From assembly GCA_017645245.1 (NCBI GenBank), contig JAGCPG010000083.1, positions 1 to 37,394 on the forward strand: a stretch of 37,394 nt of DNA. Reading direction: 5' to 3'. The notes below the pieces were generated by a model. It did not search any database. It had not been told where the DNA came from and saw nothing but the letters and a program-made list of their open reading frames with translations. Positions 27,172 to 35,558 of the stretch are shown here, piece by piece (the stretch's first letter is position 1; every line of letters begins with the position of its first letter). A program made the position numbers and the translations under genes. The DNA is from Bacteroidales bacterium. Its GTDB lineage: Bacteria > Bacteroidota > Bacteroidia > Bacteroidales > F082.

Positions 27172-28086
27172 TTAATAGGTTTGATAACGGGATAATGAAT
27201 TGGCCAAGGAGGTTCTTATTTCTTCGCGTAGTGATTGTGGCTCAAGCACTTCGAGGTCAGGGCCTTCTTTGAGGATTTCTTGTTTGAAGTCGAATGTTGG
27301 AGCCATAAGGTATTCGTAGTCAGTGTATTGCTCTGTTGTGTTGATTTCCCGTTGGGTGTGATGCTTTGGAAGGGTGCGTAGCAGGGGAATCATTTTCCCA
27401 TAGGCACGGAGGACGATGCGGATTGGTTTTTCTTTGTCATCGATGAAGACACCGAAAAAGTATTTGAAAAAATTGTTGGCGTTGAAAGAAGGATCCATTT
27501 CGAAGGTTTGGTTTGTCTCTTTGAGTTTGATGATTCGGTCGAGAGCATAGATGCGGAGTTCATTGGGGTGCTGGTCGCTTTTAACGAGGAGGTACCAGCG
27601 TTGGCGGAACACTTTGAGGCAGTAGGGTTCGATGGCAATAGTTTTTGGGGTGGGGGAATCAAAGCCTTGATGCGTCATTTTGAGCATAATATTGTTTTTG
27701 ATGGCGTTGATGATGGTCGGCAGGTATTCCATTCCTTCGGGGATTTCTTCGAGTACAAGGCGGTCTTTGATGGAAAGGCTGTCGATGAGGATGTTGTTGA
27801 CGGTGAGGGTTTGCAGCATCCAGATTTGGGTTGAGTGATCTTTGAGTGTTTCTGGATTGCTGATGAGGTATTGGTAGCCGTCGTTGTTGTCGCAGGTGAT
27901 GATGATGCCGAACATATCCTCAATAGCTTGACGCAGTCGGTAGAAAGTGGTTCTTGAGAGCGGTTTACCGTTGTTGAGGTCGTTGTTGATCCATAGTTTT
28001 TGAATCCGTTCGAGGCTGATTTTTTTGGATTGCAAGACGGTGTTGATGAGCCAGATGTATTGGCGGAAGGTGTCTATGTTTCTCAT
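27172..28086 (-). CDS. WYL-domain transcriptional regulator divergent from the cas operon
   Basis: This 304-residue protein has an N-terminal winged-helix region (about 1-75; SRTTFYRLRQAIEDMFGI) and a WYL ligand-sensing domain. The name motif is literal at Trp164-Tyr165-Leu166 (RQRWYLLVKS), with YALDRI at 180-185. A C-terminal WCX-like extension follows. WYL regulators control several phage-defence systems, for example BrxR/CapW and the Synechocystis CRISPR regulator Sll7009. The start at 28086 is chosen because the open frame above it runs through the shared promoter region into cas3. The position opposite cas3, with a palindrome in between, suggests control of the cas operon and of itself. 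Confidence 0.85.
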   Translation of the reverse strand: MRNIDTFRQYIWLINTVLQSKKISLERIQKLWINNDLNNGKPLSRTTFYRLRQAIEDMFGIIITCDNNDGYQYLISNPETLKDHSTQIWMLQTLTVNNILIDSLSIKDRLVLEEIPEGMEYLPTIINAIKNNIMLKMTHQGFDSPTPKTIAIEPYCLKVFRQRWYLLVKSDQHPNELRIYALDRIIKLKETNQTFEMDPSFNANNFFKYFFGVFIDDKEKPIRIVLRAYGKMIPLLRTLPKHHTQREINTTEQYTDYEYLMAPTFDFKQEILKEGPDLEVLEPQSLREEIRTSLANSLSRYQTY

Positions 28087-28120: not shown

Positions 28121-28139
28121 TGTTTCACGTTTTGAAACA
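28121..28139. promoter_or_regulatory. 19-bp palindrome, candidate operator for WYL gene and cas3
   Basis: TGTTTCA (28121-28127), five bases, then TGAAACA (28133-28139) form perfect 7-bp arms. It covers the expected -33 regions of both divergent promoters, a good place for a dimeric regulator. The natural candidate is the adjacent WYL protein. Confidence 0.6.
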
Positions 28140-28161: not shown

Positions 28162-30318
28162 ATGAAAGAAATAATATCGCATATTAGACCTGAAGATTGG
28201 GAAATTCAAACCAATGAGGTGCACCAACAGGGCGTAGCAAAACGAGCCGCTCAATTTGCTGCTGACTTCGGTATTGAGGAATGGGGCAGGGTGTTGGGAC
28301 TGTTGCACGATAAAGGCAAGGAGAGGCTTGCTTTTCAACAGCATATTAAGAAGGAAAGCGGAATGGATGCATCAATTCTGGTTGAAGGGGACTATAGACA
28401 TGCATATATTGGTGCATTGATAGCCAAGATATTGTTTCCAAAACATCATTTGCTGATGGATAATGCCTTGATGGGACATCATAGAGGATTGTACGATGAT
28501 GGTGATATGAAAGAGGTGTTGAAGTTGCAAATGCCTAAAGATGTGGTCATTGAGGAAATCAATGCTCGGTTGGAAATCCCTCGACTTGAGAAACCTAAAG
28601 ACATTCATCATTTGGAAAGGATGTTATACAGTTGTTTGGTGGATGCTGACTTTTTGGATACCGAGGCATTCATGCAACCCGAACAAAGCAAATTGAGGGG
28701 AAATCATGAATCACTGAAAGTGTTGGAAGGCAAATTGGATGCATTTTTGTCGGGATTGAAGAAAAATGCACCTGATACTGAGGTAAACAGAATCAGGAAC
28801 GAGGTGCAGCAATGGTGCATTATGGAAAGCGAAAAGGCGTCAGGCTTCTATAGTTTGACCGTTCCGACTGGTGGTGGCAAAACGCTTTCGTCTGTTTTGT
28901 GGGCAATCAAACACGCCGTAAAGAATGATTTGAAACGAATTATCATAGCCATTCCTTATACCAGTATTATTACGCAAACAGCCAGTGTTTTGAGAAGCAT
29001 TTTTGGTGAAGAAAATGTGCTTGAACATCATTCAAATGTTGATCGAAACAATGGGAAAGACAAGGAACTATCGCAGAAGCAAAGACTCGCAACAGAAAAC
29101 TGGGATTACCCAATCATCGTAACGACCAATGTCCAACTCTTTGAGTCATTATTTAGCAGCAAGCCGTCCGATTGCCGCAAGTTGCATAACATTGCTAAAA
29201 GTGTATTGATATTGGATGAAGTGCAAACCTTGCCGATGGATTTCCTACAGCCAATTATTGACACCTTTGACACACTGAAAAGGGTGTTTGGCGTGTCCAT
29301 CCTGTTTACGACGGCAAGCCAACCTGTACTTTCAGGGAAAATACTCGGTTCTAATCCATTTGTTTCGTTTGAGGGATTGACTCAAATCCATGAAATTGTT
29401 CCACGGGAAGCCAACCTGCACGACCGTTTGCGCCGCGTGAAAATTAAGTTTGAAGATGGTGACAGAAAAGACTATGATGAGGTGGCAGAGCAAATTGCGA
29501 AGCATTCTCGCGTCTTGTGTATTGTGAATACAAGAAACGATGCCAAGGAAATTTACTCTCGGCTGCCCAAAGACGGCATTTGCTTGCACTTGTCGCGAAT
29601 GATGTGTCCCGACCATGTGAGGGAAACCATCGCCAGGGTTAAAGTTGCGCTTAAAGAGCCATCGAACACCGTTATAAGAGTGGTGGCAACTCAATTGATT
29701 GAGGCGGGCGTGGATATTGACTTCCCCGTTGTGTTTCGCCAAGAGGCTGGGCTTGACTCAATTTTGCAAGCCGCTGGAAGATGCAATCGAGAGGGTCGTT
29801 TGGAACAGGGCGAAACCTTTGTATTTGGGTTGCAGAAGCCGATACCTCCTGGCTTTATGACGCAGACCAACAATGCCCGATTGGGGATGGGAAAAGATTA
29901 CGATTGGTTTTCGCCGGAGGCGATGGAAGCCTATTTCAAACAACTCTATTCGCGAGTCAATACCTTTGACAAGGCCAACATCAAGGAATTGCTGTATAAA
30001 TCGGAGATGCAATTTGAAACAGCCGCTTCTGAGTTCCGTTTAATTGACGACAACACGACTTCAGTCATCGTTAATTGGAAGAACAGCATGGAGTTGCTGG
30101 AACGGTTGAAGAATGAGGGTGTTTCGTATTCTTTGATGAAAGCCTTGTCTCAATTCAGTGTCAACGTTCGGGATGGAGATAAGGACAAGTTGAAAAAGGC
30201 GGGTGCTATCGAAGAAGTGTTGGAAGGTGTCTATGTGATACGCGACCAATCATTTTACAGCAAAGAAGTTGGTCTTGTTACAGATAATCATTGGTTAGAA
30301 GAATCATTAATAGTTTAA
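28162..30318 (+). CDS. cas3: CRISPR-associated nuclease-helicase Cas3 (type I-C)
   Basis: This 718-residue effector is recruited by Cascade to unwind and degrade target DNA. The N-terminal HD nuclease domain shows His21, His49-Asp50 (LLHDKGK), His80 and His106-His107. The SF2 helicase has Walker A VPTGGGKT (234-241), a DEVQ box at 352-355 and motif VI QAAGRCNREG (536-545). All expected catalytic residues are present. It is the first gene of the operon, with cas5c three bases downstream, and is divergent from the WYL regulator. Confidence 0.95.
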   Translation: MKEIISHIRPEDWEIQTNEVHQQGVAKRAAQFAADFGIEEWGRVLGLLHDKGKERLAFQQHIKKESGMDASILVEGDYRHAYIGALIAKILFPKHHLLMDNALMGHHRGLYDDGDMKEVLKLQMPKDVVIEEINARLEIPRLEKPKDIHHLERMLYSCLVDADFLDTEAFMQPEQSKLRGNHESLKVLEGKLDAFLSGLKKNAPDTEVNRIRNEVQQWCIMESEKASGFYSLTVPTGGGKTLSSVLWAIKHAVKNDLKRIIIAIPYTSIITQTASVLRSIFGEENVLEHHSNVDRNNGKDKELSQKQRLATENWDYPIIVTTNVQLFESLFSSKPSDCRKLHNIAKSVLILDEVQTLPMDFLQPIIDTFDTLKRVFGVSILFTTASQPVLSGKILGSNPFVSFEGLTQIHEIVPREANLHDRLRRVKIKFEDGDRKDYDEVAEQIAKHSRVLCIVNTRNDAKEIYSRLPKDGICLHLSRMMCPDHVRETIARVKVALKEPSNTVIRVVATQLIEAGVDIDFPVVFRQEAGLDSILQAAGRCNREGRLEQGETFVFGLQKPIPPGFMTQTNNARLGMGKDYDWFSPEAMEAYFKQLYSRVNTFDKANIKELLYKSEMQFETAASEFRLIDDNTTSVIVNWKNSMELLERLKNEGVSYSLMKALSQFSVNVRDGDKDKLKKAGAIEEVLEGVYVIRDQSFYSKEVGLVTDNHWLEESLIV

Positions 30319-30321
30319 AAT

Positions 30322-31020
30322 ATGGAATATTACGACAAGGAATTTTGTTTGGAAGTATGGGGACCGATGGCCTGCTTCACTCGTCCAGAGTTGAAAGTGG
30401 AGCGAGTGAGTTACGATGTCATTACGCCATCGGCAGCGCGAGCTGTGTTTGAGGCCATCTTTTGGAAGCCTGCCATCCATTGGCAAGTGACAAAAATAGA
30501 GGTGCTTAATCCCATCAAATGGACAACCATCAGGCGCAATGAGGTGGGTGCTGTGGCTTCGAAGAACCCCATATTCATTGAAGACAAGAGACAACAGAAG
30601 AATGCACTTGTACTTCAAGATGTCCGCTATCGAATTTGGGCAAAGTTGGAGTTTATCCCGCAATGGAAACGAAAAGAAACCAAGAATGCCCAAATTGATG
30701 CCGAAGAAGCCGAGTTACTTCGCAAAGACGAAAATCCTGGCAAGTACAATGCCATGTTTGAGCGTAGGGCAAGCAAAGGCCAATGTTTCAATCAGCCCTA
30801 TCTAGGTACTCGCGAGTTTTCGGCCTCATTCCGTTTGGTAAATCCTGAAAAAGAGGAACTTGCCTCTGCAATTGACGAAAGTCGCGATCTTGGTATTATG
30901 CTTTATGATATGGACTTTGAGAAAGATGTTAATAATCCTCCGGCATTGTTCTATCGTGCGAGGATGGAGAAAGGTGTCATAATTGTTCCACCTAAAGACA
31001 GTAAGGAGGTTTTGAGATGA
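30322..31020 (+). CDS. cas5c: Cas5c (Cas5d), crRNA-processing Cascade subunit
   Basis: The 232-residue protein starts with FCLEVWGPMACFTRPELKVE and contains SYDVITPSAARAVFEAIFWK, the signature of type I-C Cas5. In I-C systems, which lack Cas6, Cas5 itself cuts the pre-crRNA at the repeat hairpin and then caps the 5' handle. No cas6 is present in this locus, in agreement. The start of cas8c overlaps its stop by four bases. Confidence 0.95.
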   Translation: MEYYDKEFCLEVWGPMACFTRPELKVERVSYDVITPSAARAVFEAIFWKPAIHWQVTKIEVLNPIKWTTIRRNEVGAVASKNPIFIEDKRQQKNALVLQDVRYRIWAKLEFIPQWKRKETKNAQIDAEEAELLRKDENPGKYNAMFERRASKGQCFNQPYLGTREFSASFRLVNPEKEELASAIDESRDLGIMLYDMDFEKDVNNPPALFYRARMEKGVIIVPPKDSKEVLR

Positions 31021-32752: not shown

Positions 32753-33838
32753 ATGTCAGAATTAAAAAACAGAATTGATTTCGTTTACATCTTTGATGTA
32801 CAGGATGGTAACCCCAATGGAGACCCTGATGCAGGTAACTTGCCTCGCGTGGATGCCGAAACAGGCATGGGCCTTGTGACCGATGTGTGCCTGAAGCGCA
32901 AAGTGCGTAATTATGTGCAGGTGGTAAAAGGAGCAGCAAAAGGCTTTGACATCTATGTAAAAGAAAAAGCGGTACTTGGAAGAAGCCATGTGGCTGCATT
33001 CAAGGCATTAGGGTACCAGTTAGGCGAAGAGTCAAAAAAAGAAATACCCAACGAATTAAAAGAAGATCTTGAAGAATCGTCTTTGTTTGAGGGTCTCTCA
33101 ATTATTGAAGAAGATGAAATCGGATATTTGGTGGTCGAGGGAAATGCTGATAAAAAGGCAATCCAAGAATGGTTAAAAGAATCTGAATTGAGCAAACAAG
33201 CGATTAGTTTTATTAAAACTGCACTGAAGGATGCTAAATCAAGGAAGCAAACCCCAGAAGAAACCGAAGGCGGTCGTCAATGGATGTGCTCTAACTTCTA
33301 TGATATTAGGAGTTTTGGTGCTGTCTTATCATTAAAATCAGCACCTAATTGTGGTCAGGTCAGAGGCCCAATCCAATTGACTTTTGCTCGGTCGGTAGAT
33401 AAGATTGTTGCATCTGAACATTCTATTACTCGTATGGCCGTGGCTACTGAAAAAGAAGCGGAAAAGCAAGGTGGCGACAATCGAACCATGGGTCGTAAAG
33501 CCACAGTTCCATACGGCCTCTATGTTTGTCACGGTTTCATTTCAGCCAACCTTGCTAAACAGACAGGCTTTTCTGAAGAAGATTTGAACTTGTTCTGGGA
33601 AGCATTGAAAAACATGTTCGATGTTGACCGTTCGGCGGCTCGTGGTTTGATGAGTGCACAGAAACTGATTGTGTTTAAGCACGATTCCCTCTTGGGCAAT
33701 GCTCCAGCCAACAAGCTCTTCGAACGAGTAAAGGTGGAAAAGGATTGTGACGGTGCGCCTCGGAGGTTTGAGGACTATAGAATTACCATCAATAGAGACA
33801 ACCTTCCAGCTGGTGTAACCGTTGAAGAAATGATTTAA
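32753..33838 (+). CDS. cas7c: Cas7c (Csd2), Cascade backbone subunit, with an insertion
   Basis: This 361-residue protein forms the crRNA-binding filament. Conserved parts are [20 protein letters not shown], the [18 protein letters not shown] stretch (199-216), EHSITRMAV and GDNRTMGRK. Csd2 proteins are usually about 280-300 residues. Here a charged segment at about 88-175 (rich in Glu, Lys and Ser, with [15 protein letters not shown]) lies between the IYVKEKAVL strand and the [14 protein letters not shown] region. It is in frame and rich in helix formers, so it looks like an added subdomain and not damage. rhuM starts six bases after the stop. Confidence 0.94.
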
Positions 33839-33844
33839 CCGCTT

Positions 33845-34879
33845 ATGGCCGAGAGACATTTAATAAGAAACAGCACGGCAGAATTTTTGATTTTTCAGTT
33901 GGAGAATCAGGAACAGGGTATTGAAGTGATGTATGCCGATGAGACCATTTGGTGTACACAGGAGGCAATTTCAGTACTATTTGACAAAGCGCGCTCGACT
34001 ATAGCAGAGCATCTTTTGAATGCTTTCAGAACTGGAGAATTGAAGAAAGAATCAGTTTGTCGGAAATTCCGACGAACTGCCTCGGACGGCAAACCATACG
34101 ATACCCAATACTATAATCTTGACGCAATAATTAGTGTTGGCTATAGGGCAAACAGCATTCGTGCCACCCAGTTCCGTCAGTGGGCTACTAGCGTCCTTCG
34201 GGAGTTCGCTATCCGAGGATATGTGCTTGACCGTAAACGCATGGAAAACGGCACATTCCTGGGTGAGGACTATTTCGAACACCTCTTGGCGGAGATTCGT
34301 GAGATTCGCCTCTCTGAGCGACGTTTCTACCAGAAACTAACGGACATCTATGCCACAGCCATCGACTACAATCCTGATGCTCCTACAACAAGGCTTTTTT
34401 TCAAGATGATGCAGAACAAGATGCATTATGCTGTTCATGGGCATACGGCAGCTGAGCTGATTGTGGAACGTGCAGATTCTGCGCAGGAAAACATGGGACT
34501 AACTACGTGGGAGAATGCCCCTGACGGGAAGATTGTCAAGACGGATGTGGTGATTGCCAAGAATTATCTGAAAGAGATGGAACTCGCAGATATGGGTCAA
34601 CTGGTGAACGGCGTATTGGAATTGGCGGAGAGAATGGCCAAACGTCATATTCCCATGACGATGGAGGACTGGGCCAAGCAGATAGACACTATTCTTGTTG
34701 CTGGTGGTAATGAAGTGTTGCAAACCACAGGAACTGTTACGGCAGAAGAGGCAAAGGAACATGCTGAAACGGAGTTTGAGAAATATCGCATCATTCAAGA
34801 CCGATTGTTCCAAAGTGACTTCGACAAATATTTGGTTGCATTGCCATTTGAAGGGGATGGCCTTGAAACAGAGGAATAG
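33845..34879 (+). CDS. rhuM: RhuM family protein embedded in the cas operon
   Basis: This 344-residue protein matches the RhuM family (first named as a Salmonella virulence-associated protein; function unknown). Visible features are an N-terminal winged-helix-like part (EAISVLFDKARSTIAEHLLN), the core YNLDAIISVGYRANSIRATQ followed by FRQWATSVLREF (which recalls BRO-N/antirepressor domains), then FFKMMQNKMHYAVHGHTAAE and a helical C-terminus. It is not a standard Cas gene. It sits between cas7c (gap 6) and cas4 (gap 4) on the same strand, so it must share their transcript. RhuM genes are also found inside type I restriction-modification loci, which hints at a defence-linked accessory role; this is inference. 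Confidence 0.88.
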   Translation: MAERHLIRNSTAEFLIFQLENQEQGIEVMYADETIWCTQEAISVLFDKARSTIAEHLLNAFRTGELKKESVCRKFRRTASDGKPYDTQYYNLDAIISVGYRANSIRATQFRQWATSVLREFAIRGYVLDRKRMENGTFLGEDYFEHLLAEIREIRLSERRFYQKLTDIYATAIDYNPDAPTTRLFFKMMQNKMHYAVHGHTAAELIVERADSAQENMGLTTWENAPDGKIVKTDVVIAKNYLKEMELADMGQLVNGVLELAERMAKRHIPMTMEDWAKQIDTILVAGGNEVLQTTGTVTAEEAKEHAETEFEKYRIIQDRLFQSDFDKYLVALPFEGDGLETEE

Positions 34880-34883
34880 TGTT

Positions 34884-35558
34884 ATGCTGTATGATGAAGA
34901 TCAAATGCTTATGCTGTCGGGGATTCAGCACTTTGTGTACTGTCCCCGACAATGGGCATTGATTCACATTGAACAAGTTTGGGAAGAAAACCGTTTTACG
35001 GCAGAGGGTCAAATTCTTCACAAACAAGCTGATGATCCATTTTATAGGCAGAAAAATGGCGAGTTTGTATCGTTGCGTTCGGTCGCCATTTCTTCTAAGG
35101 CCTTGGGACTATATGGATTCACTGATGTGGTCGAATTGCGCCCATCGGACAAGCCCGAGAATTGCATAGTGCATCCGTCATATCCTGGCTATTGGAAGCC
35201 TTATCCTGTGGAATACAAACGAGGCCATTCGAAGCCCGATGAAAGGGATGAAGTGCAACTTGCGGCACAAGTCGTTTGTTTGGAGGAGATGCATGGCATA
35301 AGGATAGATTGCGGCTACTTGTTTTATTGGGAGACGCGTCGACGGGATGAGGTCGTTGTTGATGAACGGTTGAGGCATTTGACACAAGAATACGCGAATG
35401 AAATGCACAAAGTTTATAATACTGGTGTGGTTCCCAAAGCAGTGAAAACCCGCAAATGCTCCAACTGTTCGTTGTTTGACATTTGTCTTCCAGACACGAA
35501 GAGTAAACCTTTGGCGAGTAATTACTTGAAAAAGAATCTGTATGAGGAAACTTCTTAA
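34884..35558 (+). CDS. cas4: Cas4 exonuclease (spacer acquisition)
   Basis: This 224-residue RecB-type nuclease has an iron-sulfur cluster, for PAM selection and trimming of prespacers. Cluster cysteines are Cys20 (FVYCPRQW) and Cys192, Cys195, Cys201 (KCSNCSLFDIC). The nuclease residues are His46, Asp81, Glu110 and Lys112 (VEYKRG) and Gln125. All are present. The open frame extends back into rhuM, but the start at 34884 gives the family N-terminus. It overlaps cas1 by 17 bases. Confidence 0.94.
   Translation: MLYDEDQMLMLSGIQHFVYCPRQWALIHIEQVWEENRFTAEGQILHKQADDPFYRQKNGEFVSLRSVAISSKALGLYGFTDVVELRPSDKPENCIVHPSYPGYWKPYPVEYKRGHSKPDERDEVQLAAQVVCLEEMHGIRIDCGYLFYWETRRRDEVVVDERLRHLTQEYANEMHKVYNTGVVPKAVKTRKCSNCSLFDICLPDTKSKPLASNYLKKNLYEETS

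What the first reader, a model, noticed from the sequence alone, without database searches (positions are those of the whole stretch)
33845..34879. RhuM gene built into a complete type I-C cas operon between cas7c and cas4
In the standard I-C order cas7 is followed directly by cas4. Here a full-length RhuM-family gene sits between the interference and adaptation genes with gaps of 6 and 4 bases, so it must be co-expressed. Its N-terminal half recalls DNA-binding BRO-N/antirepressor proteins. Options: an accessory interference or acquisition factor, a regulator, a guard against anti-CRISPR proteins, or a passenger that landed without breaking the operon. RhuM is also found inside type I restriction loci, so a general defence role is possible.
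Basis: partly seen in the sequence, partly recalled or inferred. Interest (0 to 1): 0.75.

Follow-up and report, generated by a model that had tools for sequence, protein, structure and literature searches.

The report
RhuM gene plugged into CRISPR operons
In gut and rumen Bacteroidales, a DNA-binding gene called rhuM, which usually stands alone and may be a defence gene, has repeatedly settled at one and the same spot inside the type I-C CRISPR immune operon, which suggests that this operon serves as an expression site for an interchangeable second layer of defence.

Summary
In detail: a full-length RhuM gene (33845-34879, PF13310) lies between cas7c and cas4 of a complete I-C operon, with gaps of 6 and 4 nt. 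It is not a one-off. 14 of the 80 closest relatives occupy the same slot, co-directional and tight on both sides; in an order-level sample 5 of 15 readable I-C operons have it. At least three RhuM lineages sit there (four if the window counts apart). The window's copy falls outside the main CRISPR clade, among stand-alone copies, though its junction and codons 21-40 look CRISPR-type. Three blocks assort independently (cas3-5-8-7; rhuM; cas4-1-2), and the helix-turn-helix comes in four swapped classes, all found inside I-C operons. This argues against a Cascade or Cas1-Cas2 subunit and against a dedicated cas regulator. Best reading: an autonomous, optional, probably defensive plug-in expressed from the cas operon. 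Slot tolerance is a serious rival: the same slot also takes Bro-N, DUF559, HicA, PIN and IS200-like genes. Function is untested. RhuM near cas genes is in print; this slot was not found described in my searches of one open-licence library.

The parts
27172..28086 (-). WYL/WCX-domain regulator divergent from cas3; the listed ORF runs to 28344 but its first 86 codons overlap cas3, so the start is probably 28086
   Evidence: ORF; PF13280, PF25583; translation from 28086; start is inference
28122..28138 (.). palindrome GTTTCACGTTTTGAAAC between WYL and cas3, operator-like; exact pattern also in four rhuM-less same-genus I-C loci and in no other of 221 loci
   Evidence: function is inference
28162..30318 (+). 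cas3 (type I-C)
30322..31020 (+). cas5c
   Evidence: TIGR01876
31017..32729 (+). cas8c / csd1
   Evidence: TIGR01863
32753..33838 (+). cas7c / csd2, with an extra stretch of roughly 80 residues after residue 76 relative to 283-284-aa relatives
   Evidence: (TIGR02589)
33839..33844 (+). 6-nt cas7c-rhuM junction CCGCTT, of constant length in 17 of 17 distinct loci
33845..34879 (+). rhuM, 344 aa
   Evidence: PF13310; PADLOC PDC-S05
33983..34114 (+). RhuM residues 47-90: variable helix-turn-helix/wing cassette, class H4 (STIAEHL with CRKFRRT)
   Evidence: HTH assignment is by sequence pattern, no structure
34052..34804 (+). RhuM residues 70-320 matched by PF13310; residues 91-240 are the conserved core, 281-300 a second variable stretch
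34884..35558 (+). cas4
   Evidence: TIGR00372
35542..36564 (+). cas1 (cas1c)
   Evidence: TIGR03640
36569..36859 (+). cas2
   Evidence: TIGR01573
37029..37394 (+). CRISPR array, six copies of a 33-nt repeat, running to the end of the window

Best explanation
rhuM here is an optional plug-in gene carried in a module-boundary slot of I-C operons. It encodes an autonomous protein: a sequence-variable N-terminal helix-turn-helix (recognition part) joined to a strongly conserved RhuM core (executing part). SHOWN: place, recurrence, at least three separate lineages in the slot, no promoter motif of its own inside the operon, independent assortment from both cas blocks, swapping of the helix-turn-helix among four classes. 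INFERRED: the cas promoter, divergent from a WYL regulator, drives rhuM together with the cas genes, so that RhuM is made when the CRISPR system is on; the helix-turn-helix recognises DNA (or another feature) of incoming elements, and swapping cassettes changes what is recognised; the core then blocks the invader or stops the cell, as a second layer that does not need Cascade or Cas1-Cas2. Because it works alone, the same gene can also live as a single gene elsewhere and move in and out of CRISPR loci.
For: Separate lineages: main clade, G272/L143 and G708/L196 (starred branches force 4 changes, window included). Embedded: 14 of 14 tight on both sides (20 nt or less) against 1 of 66 stand-alone copies; TAnnTTTG within 120 nt in 0 of 14 against 28 of 64, p 0.0014. 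Autonomy: rank correlation of rhuM body distances with each cas gene between -0.12 and 0.09 in 15 loci, against 0.71-0.80 within cas3-5-8-7 and 0.61-0.83 within cas4-1-2. Variable recognition part: four classes, 25 changes on a tree built without those columns. Defence link: the 25 PADLOC models shown, of 37 matched, are candidates PDC-S05 or PDC-S23; RhuM is on several streptococcal satellite phages. Selection: dN/dS 0.05, but only 2 of 171 pairs were unsaturated; window against L006 dN 0.12, dS 1.37.
Against: No phenotype of any RhuM in phage defence was found. Among 97 scanned neighbours of stand-alone copies no PADLOC model and no Pfam family matches more than 3, so defence-island placement of stand-alone copies is not shown. 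The slot also takes unrelated genes. rhuM is absent from most readable I-C loci (present in 7 of 44 pooled). Independent assortment could arise from crossovers within rhuM itself. No structure could be predicted, and PDB sequence searches found no relative.
Confidence: 0.55

Rival explanations
1. Slot tolerance: the cas7-cas4 junction is a weak link where any gene that keeps the operon readable can land; rhuM is common in Bacteroidales and is there as a passenger or selfish single gene without a role in CRISPR loci.
For: The same slot holds Bro-N (L175), DUF559 (L176, L193), IS200-like Y1 transposase (L178, L207 by Pfam; L182 by eye), HicA (L204) and PIN-domain genes (L198 by Pfam; L197 by eye); the cas3-cas5 slot holds an AlbA_2 gene (L145) and a split YhcG gene (L152) in 2 of 30 loci, while inserts of 200 nt or more are absent from 8-7 (0 of 62), 4-1 (0 of 52) and 1-2 (0 of 31). 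rhuM seems to have left the operon again: leader relics in 4 of 92 non-CRISPR copies, what reads as a cas7 tail upstream of L075.
Against: rhuM fills the slot in 7 of 44 pooled readable I-C loci, about as often as all other identified genes together (8 of 44); it is co-directional and tight on both sides in the main clade and in L143, whereas the HicA and PIN genes lie on the other strand; the reading frame is intact in the 19 distinct full-length CRISPR copies, and main-clade proteins are 70-76% identical to the window's while synonymous sites are mostly saturated.
Confidence: 0.27
2. RhuM is an accessory part of the machine: a subunit or cofactor of Cascade/Cas3 interference or of Cas4-Cas1-Cas2 spacer uptake.
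For: Position exactly between the two blocks, tight spacing, 6-nt gap kept in 17 of 17 loci.
Against: No correlation of rhuM divergence with any cas gene (15 of 18 loci); the same RhuM clade occurs in I-C lineages whose Cas8c share only 23-28% identity with the window's in the aligned part; stand-alone copies outnumber operon copies (66 of 80); close relatives with similar Cas proteins lack it (L148-L151).
Confidence: 0.1
3. RhuM is the transcriptional regulator of the cas operon, binding upstream of cas3 or of the array.
For: N-terminal helix-turn-helix by sequence pattern; autoregulated operon genes are common (recalled).
Against: All four helix-turn-helix classes occur in I-C operons (9, 4, 3 and 1 of 17 distinct loci; one search lists 19 rows, two of them duplicates). 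A WYL gene is divergent from cas3 in the window, and the exact palindrome in front of cas3 is shared with the four rhuM-less relatives and with none of the other rhuM-bearing I-C loci (the cas3 upstream region is missing from L053, L145 and L196, and variant operators were not sought).
Confidence: 0.07

Closest known systems
RhuM family, PF13310
   Same: Window protein matches over residues 70-320 at E 3e-104; single-gene and satellite-phage forms exist
   Different: Published contexts that I saw are a Salmonella pathogenicity island, prophages and restriction loci; here a fixed slot in a cas operon
Fic proteins with a Virulence_RhuM domain in type I cas loci (PMC3936711; passages and section 15 read)
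   Same: RhuM domain encoded among type I cas genes
   Different: These are some of 10 Fic proteins; the window protein has no Fic match, and the slot is not described in what I read
Bacteroides fragilis II-C loci with two RhuM-domain ORFs between cas1 and cas9 (PMC5704556; passage and section 19 read)
   Same: RhuM at the border between the effector gene and the adaptation genes
   Different: Type II-C, two ORFs, described with type I restriction genes; no recurrence analysis in the section read
PADLOC candidate PDC-S05 (PMC12988326, PMC13356809; one passage each read)
   Same: RhuM proteins as a widespread single-gene defence candidate; PMC13356809 counts 3275 in rumen genomes
   Different: Called a candidate; no link with cas operons in the passages read
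RhuM proposed as toxin in restriction loci and DOC fusions (PMC3710099; passages read)
   Same: Idea of an added effector layer in a defence operon
   Different: Restriction loci with PrrC-like genes; proposal from gene neighbourhoods

Membership tests
Type I-C CRISPR-Cas | cas3, cas5c, cas8c, cas7c, cas4, cas1c, cas2 in order with an adjacent array | tested here: met
   repeat ends GTGTGGATTGAAAC
RhuM (PF13310) | profile match above curated cut-off over nearly the whole domain | tested here: met
   348 bits against cut-off 33.7, profile positions 1-249 of 252
PADLOC PDC-S05 (candidate defence) | match to the PDC-S05 models | tested here: met
   best 4.5e-147
PADLOC PDC-S05 (candidate defence) | protects against phage | not testable with these tools
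   needs a plaque assay
Fic/RhuM fusion toxin | Fic domain in the same protein | tested here: not met
   no Fic match in the window protein; 1 of 38 aligned RhuM proteins has one
Bro-N / phage antirepressor | PF02498 above its cut-off | tested here: not met
   9 of 38 members match, best E 0.0035; the window protein itself does not match
Core Cas protein of I-C | present in the subtype and co-evolving with its partners | tested here: not met
   in 7 of 44 pooled readable loci; no co-variation
Dedicated cas-operon regulator | recognition helix and target conserved together | tested here: not met

The most novel reading that the evidence does not exclude
RhuM is a free-standing immune receptor-effector with a swappable recognition cassette (four coupled helix/strand classes, two wing types), and CRISPR loci of several types serve as its expression sites: I-C cas7-cas4 slot, distal ends of II-C and V-A arrays, upstream of cas9. 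Operons and arrays would thus be docking places for an innate, recombining recognition repertoire that travels independently of the adaptive machinery.
Probability: 0.22. Interest if true: 0.8.

Novelty: new variant of a known kind. Interest (0 to 1): 0.6.

Why it matters
It would make I-C operons mixed immune loci in which an independent single-gene defence shares the CRISPR promoter, and it gives a concrete handle on what RhuM, a common family without a molecular function in what I read, does: compare one operon with and without it, and compare the four recognition classes. It also marks the border between the interference and adaptation blocks as a place to look for unknown defence genes.

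Tried and rejected
PDB sequence searches: only chance-level hits with one sequence, none with a profile. PHROGs gave no match. The promoter/terminator scan of 33600-35100 found no more than shuffles. The idea that rhuM travels with the adaptation genes was tested and dropped. The idea that the window copy is simply a member of the CRISPR clade was tested and rejected (holding all 19 CRISPR rows together is rejected, AU p 1e-55). Mosaic origin is likely but not certain: codons 21-40 are nearer CRISPR copies, codons 1-20 are undecided (83 against 82%), codons 241-300 are nearer stand-alone ones (17 hand-picked stand-alone rows), and at fourfold sites the nearest rows are L006, which sits beside an I-C-type array, and the stand-alone L009 (both 0.50; best CRISPR-clade copy 0.43; median 0.33). 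Enrichment of rhuM near all CRISPR types was checked in 80 genomes and not found outside I-C (0 of 56 other cas1), although 5 of the 66 non-slot loci among the 80 nearest relatives lie beside II-C- or V-A-type loci (a sixth, L024, was flagged by the repeat script but reads as a simple repeat). Whether decoupling of the two cas blocks depends on rhuM was checked in 12 rhuM-less loci: correlations across blocks are 0.51-0.67 there against about 0 in rhuM-bearing loci, but the taxonomic spread differs, so no conclusion. Apparent cas5-cas8 gaps of 404 and 407 nt in L047 and L054 come from my start choice: ORFs of 719 and 716 aa reach further back.

Full report
OBSERVATION. The window carries a complete type I-C operon, cas3-cas5c-cas8c-cas7c-rhuM-cas4-cas1-cas2, followed by an array. 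rhuM is at 33845-34879, 344 aa, PF13310 at E 3e-104, with 6 nt to cas7c and 4 nt to cas4. A WYL-domain gene is divergent from cas3, with the palindrome GTTTCACGTTTTGAAAC between them.

RECURRENCE. In 14 of 80 rhuM lies between cas7c and cas4 on the same strand: L041, L047, L051-L054, L059, L067, L070, L071, L077, L079-L081 (L077 has only a fragment of cas4 and no cas1 or cas2 hit). Three samples not chosen by rhuM: family, cas7c in 7 of 173 genomes, one of them (G146) a weak hit without other cas genes and dropped, rhuM in the slot in 2 of 6; order, cas8c in 16 of 393, slot readable in 15 (G539's contig ends), rhuM in 5; phylum, cas7c in 48 of 395 genomes, of which 30 were fetched, rhuM in the window and in L196. 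Pooled without duplicates and counting only loci where cas4 is in reach, rhuM is in 7 of 44 and another identified gene in 8 of 44. In 80 of the 180 rhuM-positive genomes, those with the best hits, there are 64 cas1 genes; comparing one search's capped list of rhuM places with them by eye, rhuM is within 10 kb of 5 of 8 I-C cas1 and of 0 of 56 others (Fisher 7e-6).

ONE SPACING, SEVERAL LINEAGES. The cas7 stop to rhuM start distance is 6 nt in 17 of 17 distinct loci (window plus 16), although Cas7c of the more distant ones shares only 45-58% with the window's in the aligned parts. On a tree without the helix-turn-helix columns, 18 of 19 CRISPR rows (16 distinct loci and two duplicates from another collection) fall in a clade of 31 (support 98/87) with 13 non-CRISPR copies. 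The window copy falls outside, among stand-alone copies; all 19 together are rejected (AU p 1e-55). In nucleotides its codons 21-40 are 92% identical to the best CRISPR copy (best of 17 chosen stand-alone copies 75%), codons 1-20 are undecided (83 against 82%), and codons 281-300 are 80% identical to the best stand-alone and 43% to the best CRISPR-clade copy. At fourfold sites it is nearest to L006 and L009 (0.50 each). I read this as a mosaic: CRISPR-type junction and part of the 5' end, body from a stand-alone gene; a separate arrival is the alternative. Two further lineages sit in the slot: G272 (L143, 49% identical, 12-nt gap) and G708, of another class of the phylum (L196, 52%, after what reads as a broken Bro-N gene).

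GOING OUT AGAIN. Four of 92 non-CRISPR copies keep at least 7 of 9 letters of the leader TAACCGCTT (L006, L039, L043, L045) against 0.13% of 6093 background ATGs. L075 keeps what reads as the end of cas7c. In L006 the rhuM stop codon runs straight into an I-C-type repeat, with a II-C-type locus and array upstream. In Xylanibacter brevis ATCC 19188 (L056) the rhuM stop is followed by half of a V-A-type repeat, then the array, a cas2-like and a Cas12a-sized gene. L043 reads as rhuM, a Bro-N-like ORF, cas9, cas1, cas2, array; L044 and the IMG/VR contig L214 have rhuM behind a II-C-type array. The types II-C and V-A and these genes are named by eye from ORFs and repeats, not from profile searches. 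Thus 5 of the 66 non-slot loci are beside other CRISPR types; I have no matched control for this figure, and the 80-genome scan shows no such excess.

STAND-ALONE COPIES DIFFER. For the 66 non-slot loci (120 of 132 possible neighbours present), median gaps to the next ORF are 157 nt upstream and 197 nt downstream; tight on both sides in 1 of 66 (L061, which reads as hsdM-rhuM-hsdS), against 14 of 14 CRISPR copies. The Bacteroidota promoter motif TAnnTTTG (recalled) is within 120 nt upstream in 28 of 64 stand-alone and 0 of 14 CRISPR copies, p 0.0014; in the latter this stretch is coding, so composition may contribute. I scanned 97 of the 119 usable neighbours (22 left out by hand to keep the set small): no Pfam family and no PADLOC model matches more than 3. 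So among near relatives the I-C slot is the only context that I found to recur in more than a few loci.

THREE BLOCKS. In 15 of 18 rhuM-bearing loci (L053 and L077 lack a gene, L143 set apart), rank correlations of pairwise protein distances are 0.71-0.80 within cas3-5-8-7, 0.61-0.83 within cas4-1-2, -0.13 to 0.14 between these blocks, and -0.12 to 0.09 between rhuM and any cas gene (ORF starts were picked mechanically). RhuM therefore does not track its neighbours.

RECOGNITION CASSETTE. Residues 41-90 are the most variable stretch apart from the tail and 281-300, while 141-160 hardly vary. By loose motif rules, 86 of 90 proteins fall in four coupled helix/strand classes (AISKHL+SKME 27; TDN+TEK-like 32; SVITKHL+CAKF-like 14; STITEHL-like+CRKF 13); 3 more are TDN with a TAEK variant and 1 has a deletion; no cross combination occurs. 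Within the first two classes both wing types occur. The classes change 25 times on the tree made without them (shuffled mean 43). The 17 distinct CRISPR loci hold 9, 4, 3 and 1 of H1, H2, H3 and H4. A dedicated cas regulator should not do this, and the exact palindrome before cas3 is found only in the window and in four rhuM-less relatives among 221 loci.

THE SLOT. Other inserts between cas7 and cas4: Bro-N (L175), DUF559 (L176, L193), Y1 transposase (L178, L207; L182 by eye, without cas4 in reach), PIN (L198; L197 by eye), HicA (L204). Between cas3 and cas5: AlbA_2 (L145) and a split YhcG-type gene, PADLOC PDC-S02 (L152), 2 of 30. None of at least 200 nt in 8-7 (62 loci, one genome twice), 4-1 (52) or 1-2 (31). 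The block borders thus take plug-ins in general; rhuM is the commonest single kind in the pooled samples.

MECHANISM. Shown: recurrence, separate lineages, lack of a promoter motif, autonomy in evolution, cassette swapping. Inferred: co-expression, DNA recognition, defence by a second layer. Not shown: any activity. Literature: RhuM with Fic in type I cas loci (PMC3936711), RhuM between cas1 and cas9 in B. fragilis (PMC5704556), RhuM as proposed toxin (PMC3710099), RhuM as PDC-S05 (PMC12988326, PMC13356809), RhuM listed as a toxin against eukaryotic cells in Pseudomonas islands (PMC12629846, one passage), RhuM part dispensable for the tested effects of a streptococcal RhuM-Fic protein (PMC6529018, passages), no clear molecular function known as of PMC4293111 (passages). 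A description of the cas7-cas4 slot was not found in the listings of searches of one open-licence library, nor in the passages read; supplements were not searched.

Noticed in passing
window 32753-33838: Cas7c is 361 aa against 283-284 in many relatives; roughly 80 extra residues after residue 76. Similar lengths in L105 (372 aa) and open frames of 374-380 in L201-L203.
   Followed up: no
L056 10001-11240: In cultured Xylanibacter brevis ATCC 19188 rhuM ends exactly at a half repeat of a V-A-type array, as if it had recombined into the array end.
   Followed up: partly
L006 10001-11480: rhuM stop codon overlaps the first base of an I-C-type repeat, no I-C cas genes in the fetched stretch, II-C-type locus with its own array just upstream.
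   Followed up: partly
L214 (IMG/VR contig): Contig in a viral collection carries cas1- and cas2-like genes, a 30-repeat II-C-type array and a rhuM 92% identical to a CRISPR copy (L067); probably bacterial DNA.
   Followed up: partly
phage records H11, H14, H16-H19: RhuM is carried by streptococcal satellite phages; in five of these six records it lies about 1480-1494 bases from the start of the record.
   Followed up: no
L145 1872-3446; L152, cas3-cas5 gap on the minus strand: The cas3-cas5 border of I-C operons also takes inserts: an AlbA_2/HTH gene and a YhcG-type nuclease gene in two frames.
   Followed up: partly
L196 slot: What reads as a Bro-N remnant with broken frame directly before rhuM in an I-C slot of another class; a Bro-N-like ORF and rhuM are also neighbours before cas9 in L043.
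   Followed up: partly
G000 C18:3369 and C132:2614: Two further RhuM-like genes in the window's own genome, 45% identical to the window copy in the matched parts.
   Followed up: no
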